A DNA stretch of 64,000 nucleotides, taken from the NCBI RefSeq assembly GCF_003573695.1, contig NC_039368.1, forward strand, positions 85,960,455-86,024,454. Reading direction: 5' to 3'. Position numbers and translations under genes: made by a program. Below are positions 3,665 through 30,995 of this stretch, one piece after another (within the stretch, counting starts at the first letter, position 1; each line of letters starts with the position of its first letter). The notes beneath the pieces are model-generated. The model saw nothing but the letters and a program-made list of their open reading frames with translations, searched no databases and was not told the origin of the DNA. This stretch comes from Papaver somniferum. Taxonomy: Eukaryota > Streptophyta > Magnoliopsida > Ranunculales > Papaveraceae.

Positions 3665-3716
3665 CATCAAACTATAACTTTTATTACCAATTACTGTACA
3701 GTTAACATATGGGTAG

Positions 3717-5199: not shown

Positions 5200-5302
5200 T
5201 ATTTGCTCGTCCTCGAGTAAATCAAGAATAAAATAGAAATCCTAACTCATTGTCGCAGGCATCGTCGATTGCATTTAGCGTATGCAACAAGCCTTTAAAC
5301 CC

Positions 5303-5336
5303 CTAGGTGGCCCTAGTGGCCGAGTTATAATCTCGG
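5303..5336 (-). other. Paired-hairpin module upstream of the 3' LTR (outer element)
   Basis: On the minus strand: CCGAG (5336-5332), 7-nt loop, CTCGG (5324-5320), then CTAGG (5316-5312), loop GCCA, CCTAG (5307-5303). The same two hairpins occur at 15733-15768 and 29337-29370, always shortly upstream of the polypurine tract. The conserved text GTGGGTATANCTCT precedes it in all three. An RNA or DNA structural role in replication or packaging is inferred. Confidence 0.6.
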
Positions 5337-5922: not shown

Positions 5923-5927
5923 GAGCC

Positions 5928-7636: not shown

Positions 7637-7641
7637 ATTTT

Positions 7642-7660
7642 TGGCGCCGCCGACGCGGGC
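7642..7660 (+). promoter_or_regulatory. Primer binding site of the inner element
   Basis: TGGCGCCGCCGACGCGGGC, 5 nt after the LTR. Its first eight bases are those expected for the 3' end of tRNA-Asp, as used by Athila-type elements (family knowledge). Agreement weakens after position 8. The outer element has TGACGCCTCCGACG at the same place and the third element TGGCGTCGCTGCCGGGGA. Confidence 0.75.
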
Positions 7661-12539: not shown

Positions 12540-12772
12540 NNNNNNNNNNNNNNNNNNNNNNNNNNNNNNNNNNNNNNNNNNNNNNNNNNNNNNNNNNNNN
12601 NNNNNNNNNNNNNNNNNNNNNNNNNNNNNNNNNNNNNNNNNNNNNNNNNNNNNNNNNNNNNNNNNNNNNNNNNNNNNNNNNNNNNNNNNNNNNNNNNNNN
12701 NNNNNNNNNNNNNNNNNNNNNNNNNNNNNNNNNNNNNNNNNNNNNNNNNNNNNNNNNNNNNNNNNNNNNNNN
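12540..12772. other. Assembly gap
   Basis: 233 N followed by a run of C (12773-12786). The C run is probably a gap-edge artefact, because the RNase H coding frame resumes right after it (…[17 protein letters not shown]). The real distance across the gap is unknown. Confidence 0.95.
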
Positions 12773-12786
12773 CCCCCCCCCCCCCC

Positions 12787-13431
12787 ATAGTCCAGGCACC
12801 CAACTGGAACCTACCCTTTGAGATCATGTGTGATGCTTCAGATTATGCTATCGGTGTTGTGCTAGGTCAGCGAGAAAACACATTACTTCATGTGATTTAC
12901 TATGCTAGCAAAACTCTGAATGATGCCCAGTTGAACTATACCACTACGGAGAAGGAACTGTTAGCTATTGTGTTCGCCTTAGACAAATTTAGACCTTATC
13001 TCTTAGGTTCTAAGGTCATAATATTTACCGATCATGCTGCTTTGAAGTATCTTCTTTCAAAGAAGGATTCTAAACCTAGATTGATTAGATGGATCCTATT
13101 GTTGCAGGAATTTTCCTTAGACATTAGAGACAAAAAGGGTGCAGAAAATATAATAGCAGATCACTTGTCTAGGCTTGTAGTGGATATCCCTGATGATTCT
13201 CTTCCAATTAGGTATAGTTTTCCTGATAGACAATTATTCTTTGTTACCCAATTACCTTGGTATGTGAATATAGTAAACTATCTTGTTACTGGTCGAATGC
13301 CCCAACATTGGGGTAAACAAGATCGTTCTAGGTTTTTAGCCGAGGTTAAGTACTTCTTTTGGGATGATCCTTATTTGTTTAAGTATTGTCCAGACCAGAT
13401 TATTAAGAGATGTATACCTGAGAGTGACTAG
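12787..13431 (+). pseudogene. pol: RNase H domain of inner element pol
   Basis: About 210 codons, open from the gap to TAG 13429-13431. Ty3-type RNase H features: [14 protein letters not shown] (catalytic Asp), [23 protein letters not shown] (Glu) and [11 protein letters not shown] (Asp), then [16 protein letters not shown], which ends the domain. The following linker (about residue 130 on) leads towards the integrase zinc-binding region. RNase H degrades the RNA strand during reverse transcription. It is part of the same polyprotein as RT, cut off here only by the gap. Confidence 0.9.
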
Positions 13432-14528
13432 TCCAGTATTATTTCCTTTTGTCATGATCATTAAGAAAACTGTTGATAAGATATTGCAGTGTGGATTCTA
13501 CTGGCCTTTGTTGTTTTAAAGACTCCCACAGTTACTGTGTTACTTGTGAGCGTTGCCAGAAATTAGGAACCATTTCCCGTAGGAACATGATGTCGTTAAA
13601 CCCTATTTTAGTTATTGGGGTGTTTGATGTGTGGGGTATTGACTTTATGGGTCTGTTTCCTAATTATTTTGGTAACTTATACATCCTTGTTGCTGTAGAT
13701 TATGTATCTAAATGGATTGAGGCGGTTGCGTGTAAAACCAATAACCATAGGGTTGTGATTGAGTTCTTGAAACATAATATACTTACACGTTTTGGTACAC
13801 CGCGAGCTATAATTAGTGATGGAGGGTCGCACTTTTGTAATGGACCTTTTAGGATTCTGATGAAGAAATATGGTATTACACATAAGGTAGCTACCCCGTA
13901 TCATCCGCAGACTAGTGGTCAGGTAGAGGTTTCAAATAGGGAGATAAAACGTATTTTAGAGAAAACAGTTAATCCTAATCAGAAAGACTGGCCGTCTAGG
14001 CTTACTGATAACTTATGGGCTTACCGTACTGCGTTTAAGACTCCAATTGGAATGTCGCCTTATAGTCTTGTGTATGGAAAGGTATGTCATTTACCTGTGG
14101 AGAACATAGAGCTTATTGGGCTTTTAAACAGCTAAATTTTTCACTTGACAACGCAGGAGCCCATAGGAAACTCCAACTCAATGAATTGGAAGAGATTCGT
14201 AGAGATGCATACGATAGTGCTAAGGAGTACAAGAACAAAATGAAACTTGTGCATGATAAAAAATTTTTTAAGAAAGTCATTTTCTCCAGGTCAAAAAGTT
14301 CTTCTGTATGATACCCGCTTGCATTTTTTCCCTAGGAAGTTACGTTCTCGGTGGACGGGTCCTTTTTTTATTGTTCGCACTGTTTTTCCTCATGGAGCTG
14401 TTGAGATCGAGACACTAGATGGTAGTAGTTCTTCGAAGGTTGACGTACAAAGATTGAAACCCTTTTTAGAGCCCTTGCCTATAGGTGATGTTGAGGAGGT
14501 CCCTCTGGAGGACCCTGTGTACCATTGA
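13432..14528 (+). pseudogene. pol: Integrase, frameshifted (inner element pol)
   Basis: The zinc-binding HHCC region (13432-13570) is degraded: only [11 protein letters not shown] remains clear, after a stop and a shift near 13431-13520. The catalytic core is intact in one frame: GIDFMG (first Asp, about 13639), ISDGGSHF (second Asp, 13818) and QVEVSNREI (Glu, 13926), giving the exact D-x35-E spacing. The frame is lost near 14098 (VCHLPVE|HRAYWAIK-like), resumes in a second frame to about 14275 and in a third to 14528. The C-terminus has the GPF/Y motif ([11 protein letters not shown]) and VQRLKPFLE. No chromodomain follows. Integrase would insert the cDNA with 5-bp staggered cuts, which agrees with the TSD GAGCC. 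Confidence 0.9.
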
Positions 14529-15732
14529 TTGACCATCGAGGCAGTTGTATGTTGTATATTAGTTTTTGATTTTCTCTCTCTTCACCCAGGTACTATCTTT
14601 GTAACTTTTCCTCGTGTTATTTTAATTTTGGTATTACTCTTTCATTAGAAACATTGAGGACAATGTTAGATTTAAGTTTGGGTGGTGAGGATGAAACTTT
14701 TTGTTAGCTTTTAGTTGCAATAAATAAACTTCAGAGCCTAGAAATTTATGTGTATTAAGGATGGCACTAACCAATCTAAGTGGATGGAAGCATCTTGGTT
14801 GTAGGAGTCGAGGAACCAATCTGATTAGATGGCAACATATAAAGAGTCTATTTATAAAAGCACAGAGCTCAGGTGTTAGAAATAACATGATAGTTTCACC
14901 ATATCTCGTTGAGTCCTTTTCACTTCTGTTTTTATTTTTTTCATTTTAAACTATGTTTCTCTAAGTGATTAGGTGGGGCACACGATTCAAGTTGTTACCA
15001 CTGCTAGGGTGAAATAAAGTGATTGAGTTACTTTTTATAAAAAAAAGACCGGACTATTTAGACCAATCAGAATAAATTTTAACACTTGGATAGCAATATG
15101 TGTGTGTTCTCCCTGTTTCCGTCGCCTAAGCAAGCGTGGAATGCAGGACCCTTGGTAACTATCGTGTAATCTGATGACAAGAAGCATGCGCTTGGATCCA
15201 AAAGATCTATTCATGCCGTTAAAAAAAAAGATTATTGTTCTATGTAGTCAACCACTAGTTCCCTTGTATATGCCAGTTTGTTGATCTAGATTTAGGTTAT
15301 CGACCACTGGTTCCCTTGTATATGCCATTTGTGTTGATATTAGTCAGACCGGTATCTCAGTCCATTCGGATAGGTTCATTTTGGCAGTGGCCTTCAGACA
15401 GATATGTGAAACATCGATCATTCGGTTAACATCAAAACCATCTACATTTTTCTCTATTTCCATTTTCTTATTCTTTCCATATGATTAGTTTGACTCCAAA
15501 TATGATGTCCATAGTGCAACTATCTGAGTAGAGCTCTGTCACTTATATATGAATTTTAGTATGCTTGAGTGCAAACTCGTGTACAACAATTGGAATTTCG
15601 CATCAGGGTACTTCTTCCTATAGTCAATGATTATATGCCAACCAAGGAGATTCTTTAGTGCCTTCCAAAGTACGACGTAGATGGCTAAGGTCTGGAGTAA
15701 ACGTTTTGTGGGTACACCTCTGGTAAACCCTC
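14529..15732 (+). other. 3' noncoding region of the inner element
   Basis: About 1.2 kb after pol without an env-like ORF. 14650-14900 contains GAGGACAATGTTAGATTTAAG, matched on the minus strand at about 17800 in the outer element and, more distantly, at about 27715 in the third element. 14985-15040 matches 5930-5870 (minus). The homology with the outer element shows that the two share this untranslated region. Confidence 0.75.
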
Positions 15733-15768
15733 CCGAGACTATATCTCGGTCACTAGGGCCACCTAGTG
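15733..15768 (+). other. Paired-hairpin module upstream of the 3' LTR (inner element)
   Basis: CCGAG (15733-15737), 7-nt loop, CTCGG (15745-15749), one T, then CACTAGG (15751-15757), loop GCCA, CCTAGTG (15762-15768). The second stem is a perfect 7 bp here. Same architecture as 5303-5336 (minus) and 29337-29370. Confidence 0.6.
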
Positions 15769-15819
15769 AGTTAGAATTTTTATTTTTCTAGATTAATTTT
15801 GCTCGAGGACTAGCAAATA

Positions 15820-15835
15820 ATAAGTTTGGGGTATT
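15820..15835 (+). promoter_or_regulatory. Polypurine tract of the inner element
   Basis: AAGTTTGGGGTATT directly before the 3' LTR start TGATAGACAC, in the same position and nearly the same sequence as in the outer element. Confidence 0.7.
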
Positions 15836-17487
15836 TGATAGACACATTTTTGTTCTAAATTTTCCTCAATGTATGTATTGTTGGAACTCGATTTTTGTAC
15901 TAATATTTTGTTTTTATGTATTTTTGGAAAAAAAATATTGTCGGAAAATTAGGCTCGAAAAGTTGTGCAGAGCACCCCCGGAGGACATTTGATATTCGGA
16001 CTCCCATGTGTTGGATAAGAGGCACCTCAATTACTAAGGGGCACCTCAGGGCGTCAAATATTATTCGCACCCCACAGCTGGTTAAAAAGCAGCCCTTCTT
16101 CTTCATTTGAATTTCAAACTTGACGGGAAAGCTTGCAGTTCACGGGCAGAATTTGGTTTCGAGTTTCGGTCATGTTTTAGAGAGATTCAATGGCTGAAAT
16201 TCTTTGGGATGAGTTGTTTGTGCGTAACAGGCGTGGTACCAGGGCAGTTCGTGCAGGGAGAAATATGTCACCTGAATAACTGCTGAATCGAGTTTGGGAA
16301 GATTTTGTGGGGATTCTTTCATGGTTTTGGACTTGTGTGGGTCTGTTAAGACGAAACAGGACTAGTAACTCGATTGGTTTGAAGTCAGAACGAAGTTTAC
16401 TCGGTGTTTCAATAAAACAGGGGAGTATGTGAGCAACTGAGGTATTCACGGCATTTCAGCGTGTTTAGACGTGAAATGCTCGTGTTTGGTCGCTGAAGAA
16501 ACGTGGAGGAGTGAAGTAAATAAGATTTAGCATTGATTGATAGCGTGATAGATTGAAAAAGAGAAATAAAATATTCCCGCAAATATTTTCTTCATTGCCG
16601 AGTAATGGAAGGATTATTTGCAATTATGATATGATATTTTGGGGTTGTTTGATTATAACTAGAAGCTGGGGCTCAGAGAAGAGGGTACAGAGAGTTTGGG
16701 GAGATTACAGAGCATCACAGAGGCGAAAAATTGATTACTAGAGAGACCTGCTGCTGCTGCTTCCATTGAAGAACACAAAGAATATTGGACGCCTAAGGAC
16801 AGTCGTTCATGCTAGAGTGATAACGACTCACAGCCGAGGGTCGCAGGAGACAGTCTTAAAGCAACAGTAACAGTGACAGGAAGCTTTTATCGTTCTTTGT
16901 AACAACTCGGTTTGTAACACTTATAACTGTTACAAACCCGGTTTTTATTATATTTCTCCCATTTTCATCATTAGTAAACCCTTTGAGCAATACTAATGAT
17001 TTTTTAGCGTGTTTCCAACATGATGATGAGCTAATTCTCTCACAACCAAGGCAATGAGGAAGCTATTTACGCATGAATAATTGCTAATTATTTATTTTCT
17101 CTAATTTATAATTAATAATTCACTCAATCACTGCTTCTGCAGAGTTTTTAATTGTTTGCAAAATTTTCTTCATTAGTTGTGATTCCATTAGATAGGTTAT
17201 GCTTTGTTTAGATAATCTATGCTTAGGGGATACAATTAATTTTTGAGAATTTGCCTGATTATTTGTGAATTAAGAAATAAGGGATTTAAAAGATAATTAG
17301 AGTTCTACATTATTTACCATAATTTATTCATGTGTAATAGTAGAATCTGTGTCTTGGTATTCCTAATATTTTGAAATCAAATTTTGATCTAAGTTTTGTT
17401 TGTTTCTAAAAAATTTTATGTCTAAAATTATTTGCTTTCACAAGTATCAACGAATCTTTTACTACAACTCAATTGAAAATATCATCA
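15836..17487 (+). repeat. 3' LTR of the inner element
   Basis: 1652 bp, TG...CA, ending ATATCATCA directly before the GAGCC TSD copy. It is shorter than the 5' LTR, mainly because a short segment near 16235 (matching about 6336-6384) is missing. Many point differences from the 5' LTR indicate that the insertion is not very recent. Confidence 0.95.
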
Positions 17488-17969
17488 GAGCCCCACCTGA
17501 TCACTTAAAGAAAAATATTTTAAAGAGAAAACAAAAAAAAAAACGAAGTGAAAAGGATTCAACGAGATATGGCGAAACTACCATGTTTTTTTTTCTTCTA
17601 ACACCTGAGTTATGTGCTTTTATGAATAGACTCTTTAGATGTTTCCATCTAATCAGATTGGTTTCTCAACTCCTACAACCAAGATGCTTCCATCCACTTA
17701 GATTGGTTAGTGCCATCCTTAATAAGCATAAATTTCTAGGCTCCGGAGTTTAATACAATGTAACCAAAAAGTTTCTCCCGCACTTCCAAACTTAAATCTA
17801 ACATTGTCCTCAATGTTCTAAAGATAAAATTAAAAGCAAGAACAAGGAGAAAATCTTACCATTTGAAGCAAAAGAATAAAGTAAAGATATTGTCGTGTTG
17901 CATGAGCATGGGTTACCTCCCAATAAGTGCTAAGTTTAATGTCTTCATCCAGACATAAGAAAGAATGAA
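17488..17969 (-). other. Outer element internal sequence, post-ORF region
   Basis: The minus strand is homologous to 14640-14950 of the inner element (AACATTGAGGACAATGTTAG; GGATGGCACTAACCAATCTAAG; GATGGAAGCATCTTGGTTG). It begins with the GAGCC TSD copy. No ORF is supported. Confidence 0.7.
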
Positions 17970-19602
17970 TCACCTAGAATCGTATAGCAATAGCCGGAAC
18001 AACTGTGGGTCTTTTGCATCAAAAAGTTTTATCACAGACAAAAGGAAACTGCAATAAACCAAGAATAAATATAGCACACCCTTGCCTAGTTTCTTGTTTA
18101 AAACAACTACATCTAGTTGTGGTTCAGGTTCAGGTTCAATAGAGGGGTCTAAATAAAATATTTTCATGGGATGCACCTCCTCATAAGGAAGATCCGAAAT
18201 ATCAGGTTGTAAAGTCAGCAAAAACTCAAATAATAATTTAGAAGCACATAACAATAACCTGAATAATTGAGGATCCTCATAGTCAATCATATTTGACTTA
18301 AAAAGTTGGCCGCAATGAAAGTGGTGGTCATTCTTAAGAAAATGTATCGTTTTTATTTTCCTAAAGTGTTTAGGTTTAGTCTCAAAACTTAATAATTGAC
18401 ACATTTGAAACTCATGCGTTCCCACATTTGGAAGACAAATATTTGGTGGGAAAACAAATTCAATATGGGTATCATAGCCTGGATGGGTTTCTAACAACTG
18501 GACTTCTTCCTGGACATCATTAGGTTCGGGAAAATATGTCTGAAGATGATCTTGTAAAATGGTAAAGGTACATATGCAAGTCCCAAGTGAGGGATATTTG
18601 TAAGAGATAAAGGTAAGTCACGGGGAGAATGATAATCACCCCTAAACTTAGAGTTTCGGGTGTCTCTAGATAGACTAGCTACAATTTCCCTAATTTCTAG
18701 ATCGTCAGAATTCTAAAAATAGTCAATTGCTTCTTTTAGGTTATACACAGGTGATGCATCCTCACATATATTTAAAGGCTCTATGAGTTCATCTTCTTCG
18801 TCTAAGACTACTATTTCTAAATCCTTGGAATCTAAAACATAATTCTCAGGGTAAACTCGTTCCTCTAAACCATTATCGACTTCGTAATAAAAAGGAAATT
18901 CTACGTCATCTAAAGAAGTGGTATCTCTAGTAAAATCCTCGTCCTTTTGAATAGGTGAATAATCATTAATATTATCGGGATTTGAACCAGAAATAACACT
19001 ATCATCATAAAGTTCATTTGAAGTAACAAATTCCTGATCACTAATATCAGATTCTTCATCAACACTATCCTCATCATAATCATCATGATAATAATATGAA
19101 AATGGTTGAACCTCATCTAAATAGGTAGTGTTACCAATTCTAACCTCATCTTGATTATGAAAATAACTATCCTCATTTTCAAGGGTACTATTAGAAACAC
19201 TGTATTGAAAATTAAGACTATCTTGAGCCATTTTTCCGCAATCCTATTTGTACTCTTAGTAGATTGCTTAAGAGTATCTTCTAGAGACATCTTTGTTAAT
19301 TTCTCGTCTGGAAAAATGTTACAGGTTTTCTTCACAAATAAGGTATAAATCTTGAGAGCCTCTTCTAGAGAAATAGAGGGATTGTTTTGCTCGTATGACT
19401 GGTGGGTGTGCGAATAGTAATTGGGCTCACTCTGGTATGAACCATAACCTTGAAAAGGGGATGTTCCCAACCACTATTCATATGGTCAAAATTGTAGTGT
19501 CCATTTTGAAAATCGGTTGGATATTCTTTGTATTGGCTATTGTAATACCAGATCGTTATTCTTTCATGCAGGGGATTCGTGGGTGTGAGTTTTCATACAA
19601 AA
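17970..19602 (-). pseudogene. Non-Gag-Pol ORF of the outer element: Tyr/Gln/Asn-rich, acidic protein
   Basis: Read on the minus strand. An open frame from about 19602 contains YNSQYKEYPTDFQNGHYNFD and continues, after a one-base loss near 19470, as a second frame with TSPFQGYGSYQSEP and YYSHTHQSYEQ, then SLEEALKIYTLF and ESTNRIAEKW-like text. A further shift near 19230 leads to a strongly acidic segment (19231-18713) with YYHDDYDEDSVDEESDISD and DYSPIQKDED. After a stop at 18713, a C-terminal frame (18497-17970) has FVFPPNICLPNVGTHEFQMC and EVHPMKIFYLDPS. Total length is about 500 codons. It has no Gag, zinc knuckle, protease or RT. It occupies the position of gag-pol. Function unknown; the third LTR element encodes a similar product (26226-27560). 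Confidence 0.6.
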
Positions 19603-20123
19603 TAAAACCCACTGACAGGGGATTTGTGGGTGGATAGAGTCTTATCTCCCGTACCGGACGAGAGATGAACCGTTGAAGTCGACTCAAGCCACCGACTTCT
19701 GTGTCAGTGTACGAACCTGAGGGGCTGAGACAGTATCGTAACTGTCGTGCTTCCCTGCAAACAGTTCATATTTAATTTTAACCCTTCCTTAGGGTTTAAA
19801 AATAATAATGTTCCAATGTCCAAAAAGTAACCAAAAAGATGTCCAAAAATAAAAAGAAAAATTACAACAAAGAAATCCCTAATACAATTTCCAAAAAAAT
19901 AAAAAAATAAAAAAAATAATTATGTACAAAATCTTCTTCTTCACTCCTTTCGGATTCCTCTTTTCTTTCCTTCTTTGGTGATGCTTTCCTTTTATAGCAC
20001 TTTTTCTTTCCTTGTAGCTTCTCTCCAAATATGAAAATAATCGAAAAATACCAAAGGAGTAAAAGAGAACAAAAAATTCTAAATAAAGATAAAGTAAATC
20101 TAAAACCTAAAACCAAATACAAA
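19603..20123 (-). other. 5' leader of the outer element
   Basis: 19640-19790 (minus) aligns with the leader block 8040-8175 of the inner element: AAATATGAACTGTTTGCAG, CAGCCCCTCAGGTTCGTACA, GAGTCGACTTCAACGG. At the inner splice-donor position (GGAGGTAAGT) the outer copy reads GGAGATAAGA, so the donor GT is lost. 19860-20120 is a purine/T-rich segment resembling 7690-8030 (AAAGGAAGAAAAGAGG-like). Confidence 0.6.
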
Positions 20124-20141
20124 TCTTCGTCGGAGGCGTCA
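20124..20141 (-). promoter_or_regulatory. Primer binding site of the outer element
   Basis: Minus strand TGACGCCTCCGACGAAGA, 5 nt after the LTR end CTATATCA. The same position and spacer (ATTTT) as in the inner element; one change in the first eight bases (TGGCGCC to TGACGCC). Confidence 0.65.
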
Positions 20142-21419
20142 AAAATTGATATAGTTTTTAAAGGTTAAGTAAAGTTCGTTCAACTCGGTCTTGTAAAGGT
20201 TTGATTTAAGACTTTAAAATAGAAAACACTAGAGTTTGTCACAATATCGAGAGATATTAGGACTTTGAATTTCACCATTAATCACATTCAATTGATTCAT
20301 ATAATGATTTATAACAATTTTAACTCTTTTGTTGACTCTTTTCTTTGCCAAAAGTAGATTTCTAAAACATTAGATGTAAATCACAATCATGGTGTATCAA
20401 AAACTCATATGTCTAAGCATACACCATCAAACGAAATCACAACTAATTAGTGAATCATAAATCAATTAAACAAGTGCAAAAGTCATAAAGAATTAATTAT
20501 AGTTACCAATCAATTGTGAAATACGGATTCCTCCGTCATCCCAGTGTTTTATGCGATTGTCCTTAGCAGCACAAAGTTCTTCGTATTCTTCTTTTTCCTG
20601 CACGTCTCTGCTCCTGCTGCTGCAACTCCACCTGCAGCGTGATTTTATGCCTCTGCTTCACCCCCAACTATCTACTCCCACTCTTGTGACTCGGTAATCC
20701 CTTTATACATAACATCAACCCTCTTGAGCAAGAAAACTCCAAAAATACCTCTTTTCCTCCCTCGGCCAGGTCACGATATTATTTCCATTTTTGTTTCTTC
20801 TTTACGCGTCAATCACAGATGCTGAGTTGTTACAGACCCTTGCAAATGTAGAATGAGATAATAGAGAGGATATCTTGTCTATTTTTTACTCGTAACTTCC
20901 TTGCATAAAATCAACAGAATCCAAGAATATATCAATACCTTGTTTCATCGAGAGTCGATGAAAACTTTATTTTTCTCCTACACGGCTTCTATGGTCTATC
21001 CAAACTCCATCAATACCTTATAAAAATCCCGTACATTCAATCTTACGCATTAAATCCTCTTATAACTCTTCACGGAACTCCCAAAAATCCGATAATAATT
21101 CCACATCCACTGTTTTCTTAAAACCAATTATCCAGCCCAACTCAATCCAGTCCAACGCCCATACATATCCTGTCTGCTTCATTCAAGTCCAGCCCAATCG
21201 ATTTTGGAAACTGAATCTCTATAAAACTCGTCTAATTTCGGTCTTGAATTTAGGGTACATCATTTATATGTCCCTATTTTTGACATCTAATAAATATTTC
21301 CTTATACAACAATAAATATGTCCATACTTTTTAATAACCTTATCCATTTAAAATTAGATTACCTTAATACCCTCATCCAAATAATATTTTTCTTTATTTC
21401 AAAATGGAACAAATTTTCA

Positions 21420-21640
21420 TCTACTACTTCACCACCACCACTAGCACCACCACCACCAACATTCAACTACCATTCCACCACCACCGTTCAACACCCACTA
21501 CCTACCAACCACCACCACTAATATTCCACCACCACTCCTTCGCCACCACCATTACACCACCAACAATCCTCCACCACCACTAGTCCGTCGCCGCTACCGC
21601 CACTAGTCCGCATCCACAGACGCCAGCGCCACCACTGGTT
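21420..21640 (+). repeat. CCA-rich low-complexity tract
   Basis: CCACCACCAC-type sequence with interspersed TTC and ATT. Frames through it (for example a Pro/His-rich one) are by-products of the repeat. A GGTGG-rich counterpart lies at 22995-23085, so the two tracts form an inverted pair near the element ends. Confidence 0.8.
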
Positions 21641-21679
21641 CAGATATTTTTTTATCAACAACAAGAGTTGGTCCAAATA

Positions 21680-22345
21680 AAAATTGAACTGATAGTACAA
21701 GTTGATCCAATTTAGGGGATCAATAACGGTAGTTGATCAATAAAAAAGGATCAACAATGAAAGTTGATCCATATAAATGGACTGAACTTGGCGTGAGTCA
21801 AACACGCATCATCTGACATCGAGTCAGTCATGCTACTATTGCGCCACAAGTTCAATATTTGAAGAAATTTGAATGATTTAAATTACAAGCATGAATATAC
21901 TAATCCAAGGAAATGTTGTCAACAATAGGAGTTGAAAGAATCAATAACAGTAGTTGATCCCATAAAAAATTGGGTCAACAACAGGAGTTGATCCCATAAA
22001 TGGATCAACAACAATAGTTGATCCCATAAAAACTTATAAACAATAAGAGTTGAAAGGATCAACAACATTAGTTGATCCCATAAAATGGATTAACAACAGT
22101 AGTTGATCCTATAAAACATATAAACAGTAGAAGTTGAAAGGATCAACAACAATAGTTGATCCCATAAAAAATTGGGTCAACAACAGGAGTTGATCCCATA
22201 AAAACGGATCAATAGCAGGAGTTGGTCCCATAAAATGGATCAACAACAGTAGTTGATCCCATAAAAAATTGGGTCAACTGCAGGAGTTGATCCAATAAAT
22301 GGGATAAACAACAAAAATTGATCCCATAAAAACATATAAACAACA
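21680..22345. repeat. Minisatellite of self-complementary GATCAAC...GTTGATC units
   Basis: More than a dozen degenerate units built on GATCAACAACAGTAGTTGAT followed by CCCATAAAA, spaced about 30-45 bp. Each unit is a 7-bp inverted repeat with a 6-7 nt loop, so a transcript would form a chain of small hairpins. The tRNA-like sequence interrupts the array at 21784-21853. Confidence 0.85.
21784..21853 (-). tRNA. tRNA-like sequence (tRNA-Trp-like pseudogene, anticodon loop CTCGATG)
   Basis: Minus strand, 70 nt. Acceptor GAACTTG pairs perfectly with CAAGTTC. D arm GCGC-AATAGTA-GCAT (two weak pairs), anticodon stem ACTGA/TCAGA with one mismatch, loop CTCGATG (anticodon position CGA), variable TGAT, T arm GCGTG-TTTGACT-CACGC (perfect stem; TTCGA changed to TTTGA). 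The text TGGCGCAATAGTAGC is close to the A box of plant tRNA-Trp (family knowledge), but the anticodon is not CCA. The intact acceptor and T stems make chance unlikely; the mismatches argue against a functional tRNA. It could instead be a SINE-like promoter fragment. Confidence 0.55.
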
Positions 22346-22645
22346 ACAATTGATCATCACATGTAGCTTCATAAACAACAACAGCTTCATCTCCTTCATT
22401 GCAATAGCCACCAACATCATCCTCTGCTTGCTCCTATTTCAACCCAACAAACATCACTGCAACACACAAATATACAACACCATTAAAAGCATCATTCATC
22501 ACTGCCCTAACATTCATCTAATTGTGAATCTGCTCAACTAGACCCTAACATACATCTATTTAACTCTAATCCATTAGCAGCAATCTAAAAAACGTTGATC
22601 CATTTACAGTAAACCTTCAAGAAATACTCAACTGCTTAATCTTTT

Positions 22646-23010
22646 TTGATGACATTAAATCTCATCAAGTCTTCCTTTTGATTTACAGTAAACCTTCAAG
22701 AAAACGTCGTTCACATCGATTCTTATTTATCAGCAAAGAAGAAAGAGACTTTTTTGGATCTGAAAGATGAAATACATAATTGAAACCTTTTGTTCTCGGT
22801 GAGAATATCATCGGTGGATGCTCGTGTTGGATGACGTTAAATCTCATCAATTCTTCCTTTTGATTTATAGTAAACCTTCAAGAAAAACGTTGTTGACATC
22901 GATTCTTATTTATCAGCAAAGAAGAAAGAGACTTTTTTGGATCTGAAACATGAAATACATAATTGAAACCTTTTGTTCTCAGTGAGAAGATCGTCGGTGG
23001 CTGCTCGTGT
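22646..23010 (+). repeat. Tandem duplication of about 182 bp
   Basis: 22646-22830 and 22831-23010 share GATGAC(A/G)TTAAATCTCATCA, TTTACAGTAAACCTTC or its variant, TCGATTCTTATTTATCAGC, AAGAAGAAAGAGACTTTT and ACCTTTTGTTCTC, with few differences. It lies inside the TIR element. Confidence 0.85.
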
Positions 23011-23652
23011 TGGTTGTGGTGGTGGCGTCGATGGAGATCGTGGTGGCGGTGGGAGGCGATGGAGATGATGGTGGTGAGAGTGTTGATTTTTTTTTTCTTT
23101 GGTGATAAAAATTAAGAAATGAAGAAGAAGGAAATAAGAGAGGGAGGTTAAATAAGGAATTATAACAATTGTGTTTTTAAAAGTATTTTCAATTATGCCA
23201 TCAGGGACATTTGTAAAGTCTGTTAGGGATATTTGTGAAGGTCCATCAAAAGGAGGGACAATATTTCAATTACCACATGAATTTATGCAGTATAAAGTTT
23301 CTTTTTCCCGCCATTTTTTCTTTTTGAATTTGAGGAGACAGTGGAATCGCCATATCCAGCACAGGAGTCCCTTTAGCACTTGGGTGAAAATGGTAAATTC
23401 AAAGGTGTAAATAGCAATATTCCTGGGGTGCGCATAGAGAATTTCTCGGTGCCTTTACCGTGTTCTACGGGTGCTTTTAGTAATTCATCTAGGGGGTCCA
23501 AATACCACTTTTTGAGACGAATTCTCCGCAAAAGCTTATTTCTCCAAAAAACACCTACAAAGACATGAAATAACCAAATAAGTACAAAATCGAGCATTAT
23601 AATTACACATAATTGAGATCATATCAGGCACATAAATGTGTCTATCAGGTAG

Positions 23653-24264
23653 CTGACATAACAGTGACCTTTGAGGAGAACTCTCGAAAGTTCGATTAAC
23701 TAGGCGATCAACTCAGTGAAAAATCAGCGTGACTCGGATGAAAATTTCAGCTTTGAATTTCTCACCTAATCTTAAATCTCTTTATTTGCATATTATTTTC
23801 TAGTGATTCTTATCTATCCTAACCTGTTATTTCGTATTTAATGGACTCTTTTATTCCCTTTCACTAATTCCAGTATCGGTTCTTGAATGGTTGTTTGAAG
23901 TTTGGAGTGGTTTTGCCTAATCTTCCAAGTAATCTGATCTTCTGGTCCAATGGCTCAATTTTTAATATTTTCTAAGCACGCTTTGATGCAGTTATTTCTT
24001 ATACCAAATGATATCCTCTTTTTCATAAATGAAGAAATTGAATTGTTTATCTTATGCCAGCTTTCTAGGGTTTCAAGACAAACCAGCCGACTTTCCTTTA
24101 AAGCTTTAACGCTATCGAGTAAATTATTAAGTTGTAAGAATTCTTATGCCAGGTGTACGACATTCATCAAGGGTAAAAGATGTGCTAAATTATTATTACT
24201 ATATGTTTACCTCGTTCTCTTCTCCCGACTTTTATCCTCTTTTCTTTTTTCTTGCTGTTCTGCA
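23653..24264 (+). other. LINE A 5' UTR
   Basis: From 23676 it aligns with 49050-49620 of LINE B (CTCTCGAAAG, GCGATCAACTCAGTGAAAAA). It contains a frame in phase with ORF1 starting at ATG 23950 (MAQFLIFSKHALMQ); the equivalent frame is open in LINE B too (49306), so ORF1 may be N-terminally extended or this may be leader sequence. Confidence 0.7.
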
Positions 24265-24613
24265 ATGGAGCCCGAGATACTGCAAGTTCAGCAGAAGATG
24301 GAGGGAACTCCGTTAAGTGATAGGTTGAGAGCTTTAAGAGAACCAGAAATATCAACTAAAGACTTACTACATGTAGCATTGCAATATAAGTTCAGTTCTT
24401 AAGAAAGATATATATACTTCAAAAGTTTACTCGGTTAGTGACTTTGATAAAGAATTCAAAAAGCTCTGGCCAAAAAGCAAACATATCTTCATCAAAAAGG
24501 AGGATAATGATTGTCTTCTCATAAAGTTTCATACCCAAGAATATTATGAAATAGTTCTCAAGTTTAGGCCTTGGATTTTATAAGGAGGTATGCTAGTTTT
24601 ACATCCATGGAAT
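24265..24613 (+). pseudogene. LINE A ORF1, 5' part (interrupted)
   Basis: Starts MEPEILQVQQKMEGT at 24265, as in LINE B at 49621. A stop at 24400 and a frame change follow, then DUF4283-type sequence (KKLWPKSKHIFIKKEDND, 24460-24515) to the insertion point at 24613. In LINE B the text continues CATGGAATCCCCAAATTCC; here CATGGAAT is followed by the third LTR element and resumes at 30991 after the GGAAT TSD. ORF1 proteins of this type are RNA-binding chaperones of the LINE particle. Confidence 0.8.
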
Positions 24614-26124
24614 TGATAAGTGCTTAATTTACATGTTTAGAATGTCAATTCCATACTTGTTTTAAATATAATTCTTGCATATTACTTGTTATTATGATTA
24701 TTTTTTAGGTTATTTGTCATATTAGGTAAATCATCCTAGAAGAGTGAAAAATTCTATAAAAGAGCTATAAAGTGGAGTTCTCAAAGATCCAAGTGTCTAA
24801 AGCCGAAGGAAGTGGAAGAAGTGCGACGAAAAGGAACAAAGAATACTCAAGATCATAACAAGGACTAAAAGACCAAGTTCTAATCATCCAAATTAAGGAT
24901 TTATTATAAACATCTTGAATAAAATTCAATTTTGAATAGAACGGGGAAAGAATGAGGTCATTCCGAGTTCAGACGAAGAAGTTACGGCCAAAACAGTCGA
25001 GACGAAAAATGGCAATCTATTCTACAACACCACTTTCGGCATTGCTAAAGCAATACTGAAAGTAACCATATTTCAGGCAGAAAGGGTGTATTTTGACCCC
25101 AACTTTTGGCGTTGCTTTGGGTTATTCGACAACGCCGACTAAGATAGACCCATGGGGTCCCTTTTGACGTATTTTGGCTTCCAAATCAAGAAAACACGGT
25201 CTGGGATGAATTCTAATACCTAGATCTCATGAAAACTATATAAGAGGACTTCCACAACAATTAGAGGATAACATCACATCTCATATTATACTTTTGTTCT
25301 TCATAAAATATTCTAGGGTTTACCCTTTTAGGGGGAAACCGGGTAATTGTGTAATTATGAGTTGTTAAACCCTTGTTGATTAAGGATGAATTCAATGTTC
25401 TAAACGTGAAGCTTTATTATTATACAAGTTTGTTCGGAGTTTTTATCATCATCGTTTTTCTTTTCAATATTTATGGTTTATGAATGATTCTTAGATTGAT
25501 TTGGGAGGCCTACTAGATTGGTCTATTGATTGTTCTAAAGCTAGTAGAAGTTATGAGATAAGTAATCGTCGATTGACTCTCTACACAAGTAGACATCACG
25601 AGACCTTGTAGAGGGATTCTGTGGAGATATTGTGAGTGAAGATAACATCAGCAAGTGAACCTTGATCTAAGAGTTCAGCTACTGGGATCAACCTAAATTC
25701 ACAAAGCTTAAAGCATTCGATTGGATTACACCTTGAGTGATCTACTACTTGGTGGTTCGTTGAATAGAATCTGGTAGTCGAGAACTTCTGTATCCAGTGG
25801 TAGAAGGAGTTTTGGGGATAACACTAATCTAGCTTTTTTTCTACGGTTGGTGATGAATGGTTCTAACGAAACATAAATAAGTGTTCTAATGCAGTTATCG
25901 CTTGGTAACGACGAAGGATTCCTTGATCATCCCTTTCTTTTCTTATTTGTTTCTTTTTATTTATCTTACAACCAATCCCCCATTGTCTTTTACTTTATTT
26001 TGATAATTCAAATAACCTATCAATTATATAGCTCTATGTGAGAACGATCTCTTACTACCGTTGTATTACCAGTTAATTAGTGGAAAATATCTTAATTAAT
26101 TTGTTGTGGTTACAACACAGATCA
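24614..26124 (+). repeat. 5' LTR of the third element
   Basis: 1511 bp, TG...CA, almost collinear with 29484-30990. TATA-like TATATAAG at 25237-25244. Confidence 0.95.
25237..25244 (+). promoter_or_regulatory. TATA box in the third element 5' LTR
   Basis: TATATAAG in the context AAAACTATATAAGAGGAC, identical in the 3' LTR (30103-30110). Promoter role inferred from position and conservation. Confidence 0.55.
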
Positions 26125-26126
26125 AA

Positions 26127-26147
26127 TTTTGGCGTCGCTGCCGGGGA
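26127..26147 (+). promoter_or_regulatory. Primer binding site of the third element
   Basis: After ATCA and the spacer AATTT comes TGGCGTCGCTGCCGGGGA, a close match to the tRNA-Asp-type site of Athila elements (family knowledge). It is a better match beyond base 8 than the site of the inner element. Confidence 0.8.
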
Positions 26148-26225
26148 TCAGTTGCTAATTGATTTGTTATTTTTTTAGTTTATTTTTATTTTTGTTTTTT
26201 TATTTCCTTTTTCTTGTGAGTTGTC

Positions 26226-27560
26226 ATGTTTCCTTACGTAAATAACATGTACCGAGCACAAGATCAGATATATAACATTGGTAATCAATATGGTTTTCAA
26301 TCTCATTCATATGAAAACTACCAACCATCCTATGGGTATAATCAAAACCAATCTTTTGGCTATGATCAATATCCCACGGAACCTTATGAATATTCTCATA
26401 CATGTCAACAACCTTATGCCGGGCATGTAAGTGATCAATCACAAGGATGGGAGGATAGTTATGCTTCTAATCCTATTTTTTCAAGTGTTGCATAGAAAAT
26501 ATGTACCATGATGGAAGATATTCGCATACAAATGGAAAAGTATTACCATGGTTTAGAGAAACATCAACAAAGCGTTGATCAATCACTTCAATAGGGAATT
26601 ACCAACTTAAGAAGAGACATGGATCATATTAAGGAAGAAAAGGAGAAAGGTGAGCAACCTTTAGAAATTACATGTAATAGTGATAAAGTTATTCCAGCTC
26701 TGGATCATTATAAATATCACTCGCCTATTCAAAAGGAGGAGCCTTGGAATCACCGAACCATTGTTATGAAACGTGTAACATACTCAAATGCATATCAACG
26801 CTATGAATAATATCCGGATTACAATATTTTTAGGCCGGTTGATCTGCAAGAAGTAAAACAAATTATTCCTTCGTCGGAGACTCAAACGGAAGACCCTAGG
26901 ATTTGCACCAATGAACTAGACTTTTTTGGGGAGGATTTCGATTCCGATGGTGAGATTGTTGAAGATATAGAGATTTAGAATGAAACCAAATTGATTGAAG
27001 TTATGGAAGACCTAATTGAACTTGCTAAAGAACATAATGATGCTAATATTTCGGTTGAAGCAGATATTGAAAGTTTGATAGAGGACCACGACATACTTGA
27101 GGTAAATAATTCACTATTAATTAAGCAAGATGAGGATCCCATACAAGGTTTGTCTAATCCTTCGCATAATTCTATATCTATTGATCATTTCCATCCAATT
27201 GAAGTAGTTCCCAAAAGAGTTGTTAATCCATCTTTTAGGAAAATACATCACTTAGGATTGGAGTTATGTTCTTCCAAAGTTTTAACGGATTATTTTTCTT
27301 CTAAGTACCCACCACTTGATGTGTTTGATTTTAGAATTGTGTAGGTTCACCAAGCTGAAGAACCTTTTGAAGTTCCCGAATTTTATGTTCTCTATCCACT
27401 TTCGAGTGTAGAAAGGACTAAGTGTGGGGGAAACTTCAATAAATTCATAGCTTCAATATTTATATCTTGTGCTAATATTTTCATGAAGTTGTTATTAAAA
27501 TTGCAGATTGTTGTTTGGACGGACTACCAGATTTTCAGATTGTTGGTGTATGGCCGATAA
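26226..27560 (+). pseudogene. Non-Gag-Pol ORF of the third element: Tyr/Gln/Asn-rich acidic protein, five stops
   Basis: From ATG 26226 one frame runs for about 445 codons with stops near 26493, 26593, 26808, 26977 and 27342, and no frameshift. Residues 1-75 are Tyr/Gln/Asn-rich (NQYGFQSHSYENYQPSYGYN; QYPTEPYEYSHTCQQPY). A coiled-coil-like stretch follows (IRIQMEKYYHGLEKHQQSV; RRDMDHIKEEKEK), then YHSPIQKEE, then acidic Glu/Asp-rich text (LDFFGEDFDSDGEIVED) and a C-terminal part (VVPKRVVNPSFRKIHHLGLE; SKYPPLDVFDFRIV). Order and composition parallel 17970-19602, including Y-x-SPIQK. No known catalytic motif. Possible roles: RNA-binding or particle protein used with Gag supplied in trans; unproven. 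Confidence 0.65.
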
Positions 27561-29336
27561 CAGACGGTCAGGCTGAGGACGTTAAACTAAGCGCTGAATG
27601 GGAGGCAACCCATAGCTTTGGTATTTTCTATCCTTTTGTTTTTAGTTTTCTTCTTGTGCATATCATATTAGGATTTCTCACCTTGATTTTACTTAGGACG
27701 AGTCAATTACATCGAGGACAATGTAGAGTTTAAGTGTTGGGGAGTGTTTGGATATTTTGCATATAGACTTTTTAAAATTTTTGCATAAAAACCTCCAACT
27801 TGTAGAGATTTTAGAGTCACTAGCATACTTCTAGGTATGTTTACATAGAGAATTTTGACCGACATAACTGAACTTGGAAGTGTTAGGGAACTACGTTGGA
27901 TTTCTTGCTTGTTAGAGTGTTAAATAATGGATCTAATCATGTCGGTGATGCAAATTAGGATCAGGGAGAAATGCATTATTAGAGTTGCTGATCAATCATT
28001 AGTGGAGACTACCTATTTTCAAATCAACAGAGGAACCAGACCAAATTTTTTTTGTAGCTGACTAAAGAGCTTTCTTTGAGCGTGTGTCACCGTACGTTAA
28101 TTCCGGGTAGAATGGTGAGCTACCCAACCTCCCACCAATAGAAGCACTACTCTTTGATCTATTGAGTGCTAATTTTTTCAATCATGAGGGTGACGTCTAT
28201 AGATGAAAACCACCTTCTTGTAGTTTGAATTGCAGTTAGCAACATTCTCTATCTCGCCAACAACAGATCCATATAAACATCATCATCATCAACAAGGGAA
28301 CGACATAAAAATTTACAAGGAAAGTTGAAGACGTTTGAGGTTTACAAGCAACAATACAAGGAAGAGAAAATTTAATATCCGAGTAAAGCAACATACAATG
28401 AGCAGATTTTTAAATACATGTTGAAGATTTACAATACAAGGGGCGGAATTTTATATCAAAATTGAAGATTTAAGTACAAGAGCGAAGAAAATCAAAAGGT
28501 GAGAATTATTGAAGTTTATGATACGAGACAATACAAGTTGTGAAGAATCAAGCGGTAAAGTACTTCACCCATGGCTATTTCCGTTGTTAGTTGTATTATT
28601 TTTCTTGTCTCAATAAAAAAATGAGATAAGAAAAATTTGTTATTTTGTTAATAAGGCCGTGGGGAAGGAAGAAAAATATATAAAGAAGTTTCAAGCATTA
28701 AGGAATTTGAGGAAAAGAGTAGAAAATGTCAAAGTTTTACAGAGTTCAGCAGTTTATCATCAACAGTTGAAGACCGAAGACCAAGAAGATGAATAAGACA
28801 AGTTGAAGACTACGTTTCTATTGGATGCTGTGAGAGTGGTGCTTTCATTGTTGCAATCAGATGTGAAGATGGTAAGTACTCTCATCCTCTATTTTAATAA
28901 TAATGGTTTATTTTCTTTCTTAAAGATCATCAGAAAAAAAGTTTTATTTTCCACGATTTTCCGCAGTCTCCAAAAATAGTTCGCAGGGTTACTTCCCACC
29001 ATTCAACGTGTGTAGGAGTCTCTCTTCATTCCTACCTGCACATAATTGAGACCCATAAAAAAACGTCTTATTGAGTGTAATTATCATAAAATCCTTTTAA
29101 GTGAGTCAGAAGTCGAGGCGAAATGCTTATTGATCGCTCTCAAACACGCGTTCTCTCATTATGGTGTGGTTATTTCTCACTCAACATTTAAGAATTAGAA
29201 TATGTTCTTTGGTATTTCTAACTTCTTACTACTAGCATGCAGAAACTCTATGTCCTCATAGCTCTTTGGATGCTTGGGAAGCTGGAATGCTTTGAAGTTG
29301 GAGCAGGTTTTGTGGGTATACCTCTCGTAAGCCCTC
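27561..29336 (+). other. 3' noncoding region of the third element
   Basis: Starts with a block like other Athila 3' regions (CATCGAGGACAATGTAGAGT, 27712). The rest is A-rich and noncoding, with loose repeats of TTGAAGATTTA/AATACAAG around 28360-28540 and a strong hairpin at 28598-28636. Nothing else recognised. Confidence 0.7.
28598..28636 (+). other. 15-bp hairpin with AATAAA in its loop
   Basis: ATTTTTCTTGTCTCA (28598-28612), 9-nt loop ATAAAAAAA, then TGAGATAAGAAAAAT (28622-28636). All positions pair, one as G-U in RNA. An AATAAA signal sits at the stem/loop junction. Function unknown. Confidence 0.5.
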
Positions 29337-29370
29337 ACGAGACTATAACTCGTCCATTAGGGACACCTAG
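29337..29370 (+). other. Paired-hairpin module upstream of the 3' LTR (third element)
   Basis: ACGAG (29337-29341), loop ACTATAA, CTCGT (29349-29353), then TTAGG (29357-29361), loop GACA, CCTAG (29366-29370). Compared with 15733 and 5336, the first pair of stem 1 has changed from C-G to A-T on both sides, and stem 2 has a U-G closing pair. Confidence 0.65.
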
Positions 29371-29470
29371 CGGTATAAAGGCTTGTTATACGCGCTAAGT
29401 GTAACTGTATCCTCGACGAGATGGAGTTGTCGTACTTTAGATAGTTTGCTCGAGAATTAGCAAAAGCTAA

Positions 29471-29483
29471 GTGTGGGGGGATT
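29471..29483 (+). promoter_or_regulatory. Polypurine tract of the third element
   Basis: GTGTGGGGGGATT immediately before the 3' LTR start TGATAAG. Confidence 0.75.
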
Positions 29484-30990
29484 TGATAAGCGCTTAATTT
29501 ACACGTTTAGAACGTCAATTCCATACTTGTTTTAGCTATAATTATTGCATATTACTTATTATTATGATTATTTTCTAGTTTAAGTGTCATATCAGGTGAA
29601 TCATCCTAATAAGCGTGAAAAGGGCTACAAAAGATCTATAAAGTGGAGTTCTCAAAGATCCAAGTGTCTAATGCCGAAGGAAGTGGAAGAAGTGCGACGA
29701 AAAGGAGCAAAGAATGCTCAAGATCATAACAATGACTAGAAGACAAATTTCTAATCATCCAAATTAATTATTTCTTATATTCATCTTGAAGAGAATTCAA
29801 TTTTTAAGAGAACGGTGAAAGAATGTGGTCACTCCGAGTTCGGACGAAGAAGTTACGGCCAAAACAGTCGAGACGAAAAATGACAATCTACAACACCACT
29901 TTCAGCATTGCTAAAGCAATACTGAAAGTAACCATATTTCTGGAAAAAAAGGTGTATTTCGGCCCCAACTTTTGGCATTGCTTTGGGGTATTCGACAATG
30001 CCGACTGAGATAGACCCATGGGGTCCCTTTTGACGTATTTTGACTTCCAAATCAAGGAAACACGGTCCGGGATGGATTCTAATACCTAGATCTCATGAAA
30101 ACTATATAAGAGGACTTCCACAACAATTAGAGGATAACATCACATCTCATATTATACTTTTGTTCTTCATAAAATATTCTAGGGTTTACCCTTTTAGGGG
30201 GAAACCAGGTAATTGTGTAATTATGATTTGTTAAACCCTTGTTGATTAAGGATGAATTTAATGTTCTAAACGTGAAGCTTTATTATTATACAAGTTTGTT
30301 CGGAGTTTTTATCATCATCGTTTTTCTTTTCAATATTTATGGTTTATGAATGATTCTTAGATTGATTTGGGAGGCCTACTAGATTGGTCTATTGATTGTT
30401 CGAAAGCTAGTAGAAGTTATGAGATAAGTAATCGTCGATTGACTCTCTACACAAGTAGACATCACGAGACCTTGCAGAGGGATTCTGTGGAGATATTGTG
30501 AGTGAAGATAACATCAGCAAGTGAACCTTGATCTAAGAGTTCAGCTACTGGGATCAACCTAAATTCACAAAGCTTAAAGCATTCGATTGGATTACACCTT
30601 GAGTGATCTACTACTTGGTGGTTCGTTGAATAGAATCTGGTAGTCGAGAACTTCTGTATCCAGTGGTAGAAGGAGTTTTGGGGATAACACTAATCTAGCT
30701 GTTTTCCTACGGTTGGTGATGAATGGTTCTAACGAAAGATAGATAAGTATTCTAATCCAATTATCGCTTGGTAATGGCGAATGATTCCTTAATCATCCCT
30801 TTCTTTTCTTATTTGTTTCTTTTTATTTATCTTACAACCAATACCCCATTTTCTTTGACTTTGTTTTGCTAATTCAAATAACATATCAATTACACAGCTC
30901 TCTGTGGGAACGATCTCTTACTATCGCTATATTACCAGTTAATTAGTGTAAAATATCTTAATTAATTTTTTGTGGTTACGACACGCATCA
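29484..30990 (+). repeat. 3' LTR of the third element
   Basis: 1507 bp. Ends ACACGCATCA directly before the GGAAT TSD copy. Differences from the 5' LTR are few and mostly single bases. Confidence 0.95.
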
Positions 30991-30995
30991 GGAAT

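What the first reader, a model, noticed from the sequence alone, without database searches (positions are those of the whole stretch)
17970..27560. Two gag-pol-less Athila-like elements encode a related Tyr/Gln/Asn-rich acidic protein
Seen: the outer element (3717-23647) and the third element (24614-30990) have complete LTRs, TSDs, primer sites and polypurine tracts, yet only about 3.4 kb of internal sequence each and no Gag, protease, RT or integrase. Both carry a long ORF with the same order: Tyr/Gln/Asn-rich N-terminus (YNSQYKEYPTDFQ; QYGFQSHSYENYQ), short helical segment, Y-x-SPIQK(D/E)E, acidic middle part, and C-terminal block. Known: large retrotransposon derivatives usually have no conserved ORF. 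Inference: a family of trans-mobilised elements keeps its own protein, perhaps a low-complexity RNA-binding or condensate-forming partner of Gag. This is my best candidate for an undescribed system.
Basis: partly seen in the sequence, partly recalled or inferred. Interest (0 to 1): 0.78.

Follow-up and report, generated by a model that had tools for sequence, protein, structure and literature searches.

The report
Poppy retrotransposons with their own protein
In opium poppy, two related kinds of jumping element have lost every gene for moving themselves but keep one unfamiliar, evolutionarily protected protein gene, which makes it testable what a borrowed-machinery element gains from a protein of its own.

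Summary
Largely confirmed. The window lies in opium poppy. The outer (3717-23647, minus strand) and third (24614-30990) elements are Athila-like LTR elements with about 3.4 kb of internal sequence and no gag or pol. In the window both ORFs are broken: the third has 5 in-frame stops, the outer about 3 frameshifts and a stop. The genome holds open copies of both: a 557-aa outer-type ORF and a ~445-aa third-type ORF, each type matched at 150 places (the scoring cap). Four outer-type elements checked have 97-99% identical LTRs and no gag-pol of their own. Codon models reject neutral evolution (omega 0.56 and 0.61; 2dlnL 33.4 and 44.8; controls 0.2-8.7). The two ORFs are homologous through intermediates. 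No Pfam family above cut-off, PDB, Gag or fold match was found; the protein search gave two relatives, both poppy. New here: an acidic, mostly disordered protein with a coiled-coil middle and, in 5 of 7 scanned, a membrane-like helix near the C-terminus. Shared primer site, leader and 3' region point to trans-mobilisation of the outer type by the window's own Athila family. An env-like origin is not excluded; an RNA-binding or condensate role is untested. New variant of a known kind.

The parts
24614..30990 (+). third element: gag-pol-less Athila-like LTR element; LTRs 24614-26124 and 29484-30990; duplication GGAAT 24609-24613 / 30991-30995
26130..26149 (+). primer binding site TGGCGTCGCTGCCGGGGATC, 5 bp after the LTR, tRNA-Asp-like (tRNA letters recalled)
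   Evidence: Calypso/Diaspora position and tRNA-Asp from PMC1142308
26226..27560 (+). third-type ORF, one frame of 444 codons with 5 in-frame stops; Tyr/Gln/Asn-rich start, helix, HSPIQKEE, acidic part, RKIHHLGLELCSSKVL, hydrophobic stretch, DYQIFRLLVYGR
   Evidence: open relatives
27578..27611 (+). conserved block directly behind the ORF stop (GACGTTAAACTAAGCGCT..GGGAGGCAACCC), also behind the outer ORF
29473..29483 (+). polypurine tract of the third element
3717..23647 (-). outer element: LTRs 3717 to about 5181 and 20147-23647 (the latter split by an insert 21253-23277); duplication GGTAG 3712-3716 / 23648-23652
17970..19592 (-). outer-type ORF, broken over three frames (open pieces 19592-19365, 19473-19117, 19243-18713, 18712-18491, 18617-17970); the open copy L010 has 557 aa
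17910..17943 (-). conserved block behind the outer ORF (GACATTAAACTTAGCACTTATTGGGAGGTAACCC)
5928..17487 (+). nested Athila with gag-pol, candidate type of mobilising partner; shares leader, 3' region, LTR start and primer-site core with outer-type elements; duplication GAGCC

Best explanation
Two related families of non-autonomous Athila-lineage LTR retrotransposons of opium poppy keep, in place of gag-pol, a single own gene. Shown: the gene is open in a number of copies, evolves under purifying selection in the copies compared, and lies in gag-pol-less elements in those checked; the outer type shares primer-site core, polypurine tract, LTR start, leader and 3' region with the window's own Athila. 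Inferred: that Athila family (and for the third type an unidentified relative) supplies Gag, protease, RT and integrase in trans. Inferred, less sure: the protein is an accessory (3'-aORF type) protein, acidic, coiled-coil-forming and anchored by a helix near its C-terminus, which helps the element's own RNA or the borrowed particle (membrane trafficking, assembly, or shielding from the host) and is kept because elements that encode it spread better.
For: Host: nested gag 74% identical over 61% of its length to a Papaver somniferum protein; contig lengths of the genome equal those given for P. somniferum proteins. Abundance: 150 scored places per ORF type (the cap) out of 18,901 and 18,287 first-look candidates. 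Structure: L031, L032, L033, L035 have LTR repeats 96.9-99.3% identical and no gag-pol inside; L031 sits in an Athila pol gene with duplication GTGAC; L060 and L061 (third type) show no gag-pol match in 8.4 and 9.4 kb. In 42 loci of match +-1.5 kb one has a gag-pol match, a 28% gag hit in L044. Selection: omega 0.56 (17 copies) and 0.61 (12 copies), 2dlnL 33.4 and 44.8; 3' flank in six frames 0.2-4.1, out-of-frame ORF 0.7-8.7. Homology of the two types: P0121 matches the third at E=2e-48 and the outer at 3e-9, both without composition correction (shuffles); hhalign probability 82%, E=1e-5 over 94 columns. Partner: 21-letter primer-site core shared by L031-L033 and the nested Athila, 77-89% identical leader and 3' blocks. 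Membrane-like helix: Kyte-Doolittle maximum 1.95-2.58 in L010, L048, L050, L053, P0121.
Against: The role of the protein is untested and no movement was observed. Pairwise NG86 dN/dS (median 0.51) alone is not decisive: a neutral simulation gave median 0.72 with 2.5% at 0.46. The codon models ignore recombination, although middle modules seem exchanged, and three of ten controls pass the nominal 3.84 (out of frame 4.1 and 8.7, one flank frame 4.1). Region-wise the outer N-terminus, coil and C-terminus do not differ clearly from omega 1 (2dlnL 1.1, 3.8, 3.3), nor does the third's SPIQ-acidic part (3.0). L013, L014 and L016 lie on small contigs and look alike, so the 17 outer copies may not all be independent. 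The membrane-like helix is below the threshold in L051 and missing in the shortened model P0122. The window's outer element has a diverged primer site, and the primer pattern was found in 14 of 30 outer-type loci. The third element shares only short blocks with the nested Athila. The third ORF has 5 stops where 1.84 were expected since insertion. Three of five outer pieces do not match P0121 better than shuffles.
Confidence: 0.6

Rival explanations
1. Env-only derivative: the ORF descends from the env-like ORF that some Athila elements carry between pol and the 3' LTR, and gag-pol was deleted. It then works as whatever plant env-like proteins do.
For: The ORF ends shortly before the Athila 3' region begins, has a coiled-coil-like long helix in the middle and in 5 of 7 proteins scanned a membrane-like helix near the C-terminus. 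Env-like proteins share little sequence (PMC1142308, passage seen) and are named partly from transmembrane segments (PMC7264820, passage seen). Arabidopsis Athila families without pol keep Gag or Gag plus Env (PMC2410132, passages seen).
Against: Two pol-bearing Athila copies examined have no such ORF behind pol (window 5928-17487; L062), but they belong to one family (87.7% identical), so this is narrow. The Arabidopsis families keep Gag, which is absent here. No 19-residue window above 1.4 near the N-terminus, so no signal-peptide-like start. No sequence comparison with an env-like protein was possible.
Confidence: 0.25
2. One reading: a soluble low-complexity RNA-binding or condensate-forming partner of Gag.
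For: First 22% of the protein is 43-59% Tyr, Gln, Asn, Ser, Gly in L010, L048, L050, L051, L053 and P0122 (32% in P0121); the third-type N-terminus is under selection (omega 0.48, 2dlnL 13.4).
Against: Net charge -40 to -67 and few basic residues argue against RNA binding; a hydrophobic helix near the C-terminus argues against a soluble protein; the outer N-terminus shows no clear constraint. No RNA-binding family above its cut-off (one member touches PF01877 at E=0.13).
Confidence: 0.12
3. Remnant of the C-terminal half of an Athila Gag.
For: Similar order of Tyr/Asn-rich stretch and coiled coil; single alignments such as P0121 with gag P0010 beat their shuffles (0 of 300 reach the score).
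Against: Against 120 gags, forward and reversed gag sequences score alike; profile comparison probability at most 2.5%; no Pfam gag domain in 11 members.
Confidence: 0.05
4. Passive passenger: the ORF has no function and stays open by recent common descent of the copies.
For: The dated outer-type copies are young (0.4-1.9 My at 8.1e-9), so many could be open by descent; pairwise dN/dS lies near the neutral simulation.
Against: Codon models reject omega 1 in both families, with much weaker controls in the 3' flank and in wrong frames; two families that differ at about 75% of residues keep the same order of blocks.
Confidence: 0.05

Closest known systems
Pol-less Athila families of Arabidopsis (Marco and Marin 2008, PMC2410132, passages seen)
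   Same: Athila lineage, non-autonomous, retain ORFs under purifying selection, presumably moved by other elements' enzymes
   Different: They keep Gag, or Gag plus Env; here neither Gag nor a recognisable Env was found, but another protein
Barley Sabrina, WHAM, Derami (PMC5738225, passages seen)
   Same: Abundant non-autonomous Athila-clade families, best conserved around the primer site
   Different: Their remaining protein is Gag (intact in WHAM and Sabrina_A, broken in Derami) or none (Sabrina_B)
Additional ORFs (aORFs) and env-like ORFs of plant LTR retrotransposons (PMC7264820, PMC11728184, PMC11963269, passages seen)
   Same: Conserved extra ORF next to the 3' end, sometimes with a transmembrane segment, unknown function
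   Different: In the passages seen the aORF accompanies gag-pol; here it is the only gene. No match to Pfam PF03078 (Athila ORF1)
TR-GAG elements (Chaparro 2015; seen only as a reference in PMC12582370, text not held)
   Same: Non-autonomous LTR elements with one gene
   Different: That gene is gag (from the title and recalled)

Membership tests
Athila lineage of Ty3/gypsy | primer site complementary to tRNA-Asp, 5 bp after the LTR | tested here: inconclusive
   third: TGGCGTCGCTGCCGGGGATC 5 bp after the LTR, close to tRNA-Asp (rule from PMC1142308; tRNA letters recalled). Outer-type L031-L033: TGGCGCCGCCGACGCGG, 5 bp after the LTR, same as the nested Athila, but fits the recalled tRNA-Asp only at its start; diverged in the window's own outer copy
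Athila lineage of Ty3/gypsy | reverse transcriptase in the Athila clade | not testable with these tools
   the elements have no RT; filed by non-coding blocks shared with a gag-pol Athila, which are short for the third type
Non-autonomous LTR retrotransposon | LTR pair, target-site duplication, primer site, polypurine tract, no pol | tested here: met
   both window elements; L031, L032, L033 with duplications GTGAC, TTTCT, ATTAT read by eye; LTR ends of L035, L060, L061 only partly resolved
Gag (PF03732 type) | capsid domain, gag profile match | tested here: not met
ATHILA ORF-1 (PF03078) | match to the Pfam model | tested here: not met
   0 of 11 members at E<=1
Env-like ORF | transmembrane segment | tested here: inconclusive
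   hydrophobic helix in 5 of 7 proteins scanned, by Kyte-Doolittle only
[quoted passage not shown]
   absent in the two pol-bearing copies examined, which are of one family; the wider survey did not complete
Env-like ORF | sequence homology to an Athila or Calypso env-like protein | not tested
   no such sequence was at hand

The most novel reading that the evidence does not exclude
A class of LTR retrotransposon that carries neither gag nor pol but a dedicated, self-encoded, membrane-anchored helper protein needed for its own trans-mobilisation, so that borrowing the machinery is an active strategy and not mere parasitism.
Probability: 0.33. Interest if true: 0.78.

Novelty: new variant of a known kind. 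Interest (0 to 1): 0.6.

Why it matters
Non-autonomous LTR elements are usually read as passive parasites or as keepers of Gag. Here abundant, recently inserted families in a crop genome keep a different protein under selection, without Gag. That makes an open question testable: what a trans-mobilised element gains from a protein of its own. It also bears on the role of plant env-like and additional ORFs, and on annotation, since domain-based pipelines would probably file such elements as large derivatives without an ORF (inference).

Tried and rejected
Gag remnant: tested by blastp with shuffles, forward versus reversed gags and profile comparison; rejected. Pfam: only matches below the curated cut-offs; PDB sequences none; Foldseek none at E<=0.001 with a low-confidence model. 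Viral-contig scans with three ORF pieces and one prokaryote-genome scan found nothing; the control query (nested integrase) also found nothing in viral contigs, so this says nothing about plants. The outer 172-aa piece found no protein with E<=1 among 39 candidates, but only proteins of about 95-301 aa were eligible. A 2934-aa frame is a run of N. Pairwise dN/dS was set aside as not decisive after a neutral simulation and replaced by codon models. The hairpin in the block behind the ORF is not clearly better than shuffles in 3 of 4 sequences, so no RNA function is claimed. A literature search for the 12-base motif found one unrelated paper.
Full report
Where it is. The gag ORF of the nested Athila (8798-10867) is 74% identical, over 61% of its length, to a Papaver somniferum protein, the best of 138 hits, 120 of them listed. 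The genome that holds the window has 2.715 Gb, and contig lengths in it (270405062, 180516484, 163710198, 216867838) equal those listed for P. somniferum proteins. So this is opium poppy.

What is in the window. The third element (24614-30990) has LTRs of 1.5 kb, 94.0% identical, duplication GGAAT, and 3359 bp inside. It sits in a LINE-like sequence. The outer element (3717-23647) runs on the minus strand, has duplication GGTAG, and holds a complete-length Athila with gag-pol (5928-17487, duplication GAGCC). Its right LTR is split by a 2-kb insert. LTR divergence of all three is about 6%, about 3.9 My at 8.1e-9 per site and year (rate from PMC12582370, passage seen).

The ORFs are real but broken here. 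In the third, one frame of 444 codons has 5 stops. In 2000 first-order Markov stretches the best of six frames had at least 12 stops (mean 22.5). Expected since insertion: 1.84 stops and 0.88 indels; seen 5 and no frameshift. In the outer, open runs of 176 and 215 residues were reached in 1 and 0 of 2000 simulations. Expected since insertion: 2.1 stops and 3.3 indels; seen about 1 stop and 3 frameshifts. Both were probably open, or nearly so, when they inserted.

Relatives. A search of 5.8 billion proteins with the third frame (X at stops) gave 2 hits with E<=10 among 1289 candidates, both gene models of P. somniferum: P0121 (470 aa, 2e-36) and P0122 (400 aa, 8e-30). Such models may be spliced around damage. 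P0121 also matches the outer ORF (3e-9 and, in the next frame, 7e-4, in order; composition correction off). Of 300 windowed shuffles none and one reach the scores of the two main outer pieces; the other three outer pieces are not better than shuffles (133, 137 and 30 of 300). P0121 runs on into the Athila 3' region (ETLRTM, window 14648), so it too probably lies in such an element.

The own genome. The outer 172-aa piece was scored at 150 places, the cap, out of 18,901 first-look candidates; by my count of the listing 131 of 150 have no stop inside that stretch. The third 121-aa piece: 150 of 18,287, 123 without a stop by my count. These are best-scoring places, so the share of open copies is biased upward and the copy number is a lower bound. 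Of 30 fetched outer-type loci (L001 is the window's own) 17 have 500 aa or more open; the ORF in L010 is 557 aa. Of 24 fetched third-type loci, none of the 12 best-scoring (L036 is the window's own; longest 330 aa) and all of the 12 picked for long frames have 380 aa or more.

The elements. Five outer-type copies were fetched with flanks; one (L034) is nearly half N and set aside. In the other four, LTR repeats are 98.1, 97.0, 96.9 and 99.3% identical (0.4-1.9 My; in L035 over 1055 bp only) and the open frame is 600-627 aa including leader. L031, L032 and L033 have duplications GTGAC, TTTCT and ATTAT, read by eye. L031 lies inside the RT part of an Athila pol gene, whose gag and pol are the only gag-pol matches found in the four. 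Among 42 loci of match +-1.5 kb, one (L044) has a 28% gag match in its flank; 30 of 30 outer-type loci carry the Athila 3' block, 27 of 30 the leader, 25 of 30 the motif behind the ORF and 14 of 30 the primer pattern within the piece held. For the third type, L061 has an LTR repeat 97% identical over 0.9 kb and internal blocks mostly 86-88% identical to the window's; L060 is disturbed by nested repeats; neither shows a gag-pol match.

Selection. NG86 median dN/dS was 0.51 over 129 pairs, but a neutral simulation near the observed transition share gave 0.72, 2.5% point 0.46. Codon models (GY+F3X4) gave omega 0.56 for 17 outer-type and 0.61 for 12 third-type copies; omega 1 with the best of six kappa values is worse by 2dlnL 33.4 and 44.8. 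Controls: 3' flank of 14 outer-type copies in six frames 0.2-4.1; ORF read one or two bases out of frame 4.1, 0.7 (outer) and 8.7, 2.6 (third). Three of these ten pass the nominal 3.84, so small values should not be trusted, but the in-frame values are far above. By region the signal is clear in the outer acidic-SPIQ part (15.4) and in the third's N-terminus, middle and C-terminus (13.4, 18.8, 13.3), not in the outer N-terminus (1.1), coil (3.8), C-terminus (3.3) or the third's SPIQ-acidic part (3.0).

The protein. Order: Tyr/Gln/Asn-rich start, helical middle, acidic part with (Y/H)SPIQK(D/E)E, a block CAS.(V/I)L.DY, and FRLL.Y at the end. The third type carries several alternative middle modules. 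The AlphaFold2 model of P0121 is poor (mean pLDDT 56); the long helix 51-125 is the only stretch with high confidence. Net charge is -40 to -67, and a hydrophobic helix near the C-terminus passes 1.4 in L010, L048, L050, L053 and P0121, not in L051 or the shortened P0122; P0121 has a second stretch where its model reads beyond the usual ORF end. No Pfam family above cut-off, PF03732 and PF03078 not matched, no PDB sequence, no fold match at E<=0.001.

Who moves them. L031 and the nested Athila share the primer-site core TTTTTGGCGCCGCCGACGCGG, 86-89% identical 3' blocks, a 77-78% leader and a 74% LTR start. The window's own outer copy has a diverged primer site. A second pol-bearing Athila copy (L062, 87.7% to the nested one) has no such ORF behind pol. 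The third type shares only about 64 bp near the 3' end and 51 bp near the 5' end with the nested Athila, so its partner is likely another Athila with a tRNA-Asp primer site. Trans-mobilisation is inferred; no movement was observed.

Known background. Arabidopsis Athila families without pol keep Gag or Gag plus Env under purifying selection (PMC2410132). Barley Athila-clade families keep Gag or nothing (PMC5738225). Env-like and other aORFs accompany gag-pol in the elements described, vary greatly, and some have a transmembrane segment (PMC1142308, PMC7264820, PMC11728184, PMC11963269). The Papaver study PMC12582370 treats the Retand lineage and mentions Athila once, as outgroup. For all seven I saw listings and passages only. 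Eight paper searches showed no title or abstract start that describes this poppy family; I did not read the listed papers through.

Judgement. The molecular role is open. I favour a membrane-anchored accessory protein; an env-like origin is the strongest rival. It is a new variant of a known kind: a non-autonomous Athila-like element whose only retained gene is neither gag nor a recognisable env.

Noticed in passing
window 3717-30990 and G000 C11:96733608 / C11:96759621: The closest copies of both window ORFs (98%) lie in the same order and strands about 10.8 Mb away on the same contig (26 kb apart instead of 8 kb), suggesting a segmental duplication of this region.
   Followed up: no
window 23681-34545 and 49049-55443: Two copies of a LINE-like sequence (about 91-92% identical); the first is split by the third element, the second by about 1.9 kb between 50569 and 52495.
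   Followed up: partly
window 21253-23277: A 2-kb insert with tandem repeats (21921-22355) splits the right LTR of the outer element.
   Followed up: no
G000 C7:161086184, 161091068, 161095954; C10:16699104, 16704153, 16709211; C8844:2315865, 2320759, 2325644, 2330790: ORF copies at about 4.9-5.1 kb spacing, as expected of tandem LTR-internal-LTR arrays.
   Followed up: no
L048-L059: Third-type ORFs carry several different middle modules between the same N- and C-terminal parts, as if exchanged by recombination.
   Followed up: partly
L010 1063-2733: The outer-type ORF contains the block DPQLFRLLL twice, each near a helix-like stretch; profile comparison aligns one third-type block to two places.
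   Followed up: partly
window 27578-27611, 17910-17943; L031, L032, L033, L035, L060, L061: A conserved non-coding block (TTAAAC..GGGAGGNAACCC) follows the ORF stop; I recall it as an Athila motif behind pol, but no call shows that, and the window's own Athila lacks it.
   Followed up: partly
L013, L014, L016: Three outer-type loci on small contigs look alike (same open frame 1198-2787) and may be assembly duplicates.
   Followed up: no
window 12540-12772: A 233-base run of N in the RT/RNase H part of the nested Athila.
   Followed up: no
window 39681-42279 and 57977-60280; 64-650: Further repeated stretches in the window (79-83% identical pair; short direct repeats at the left end), not identified.
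   Followed up: no
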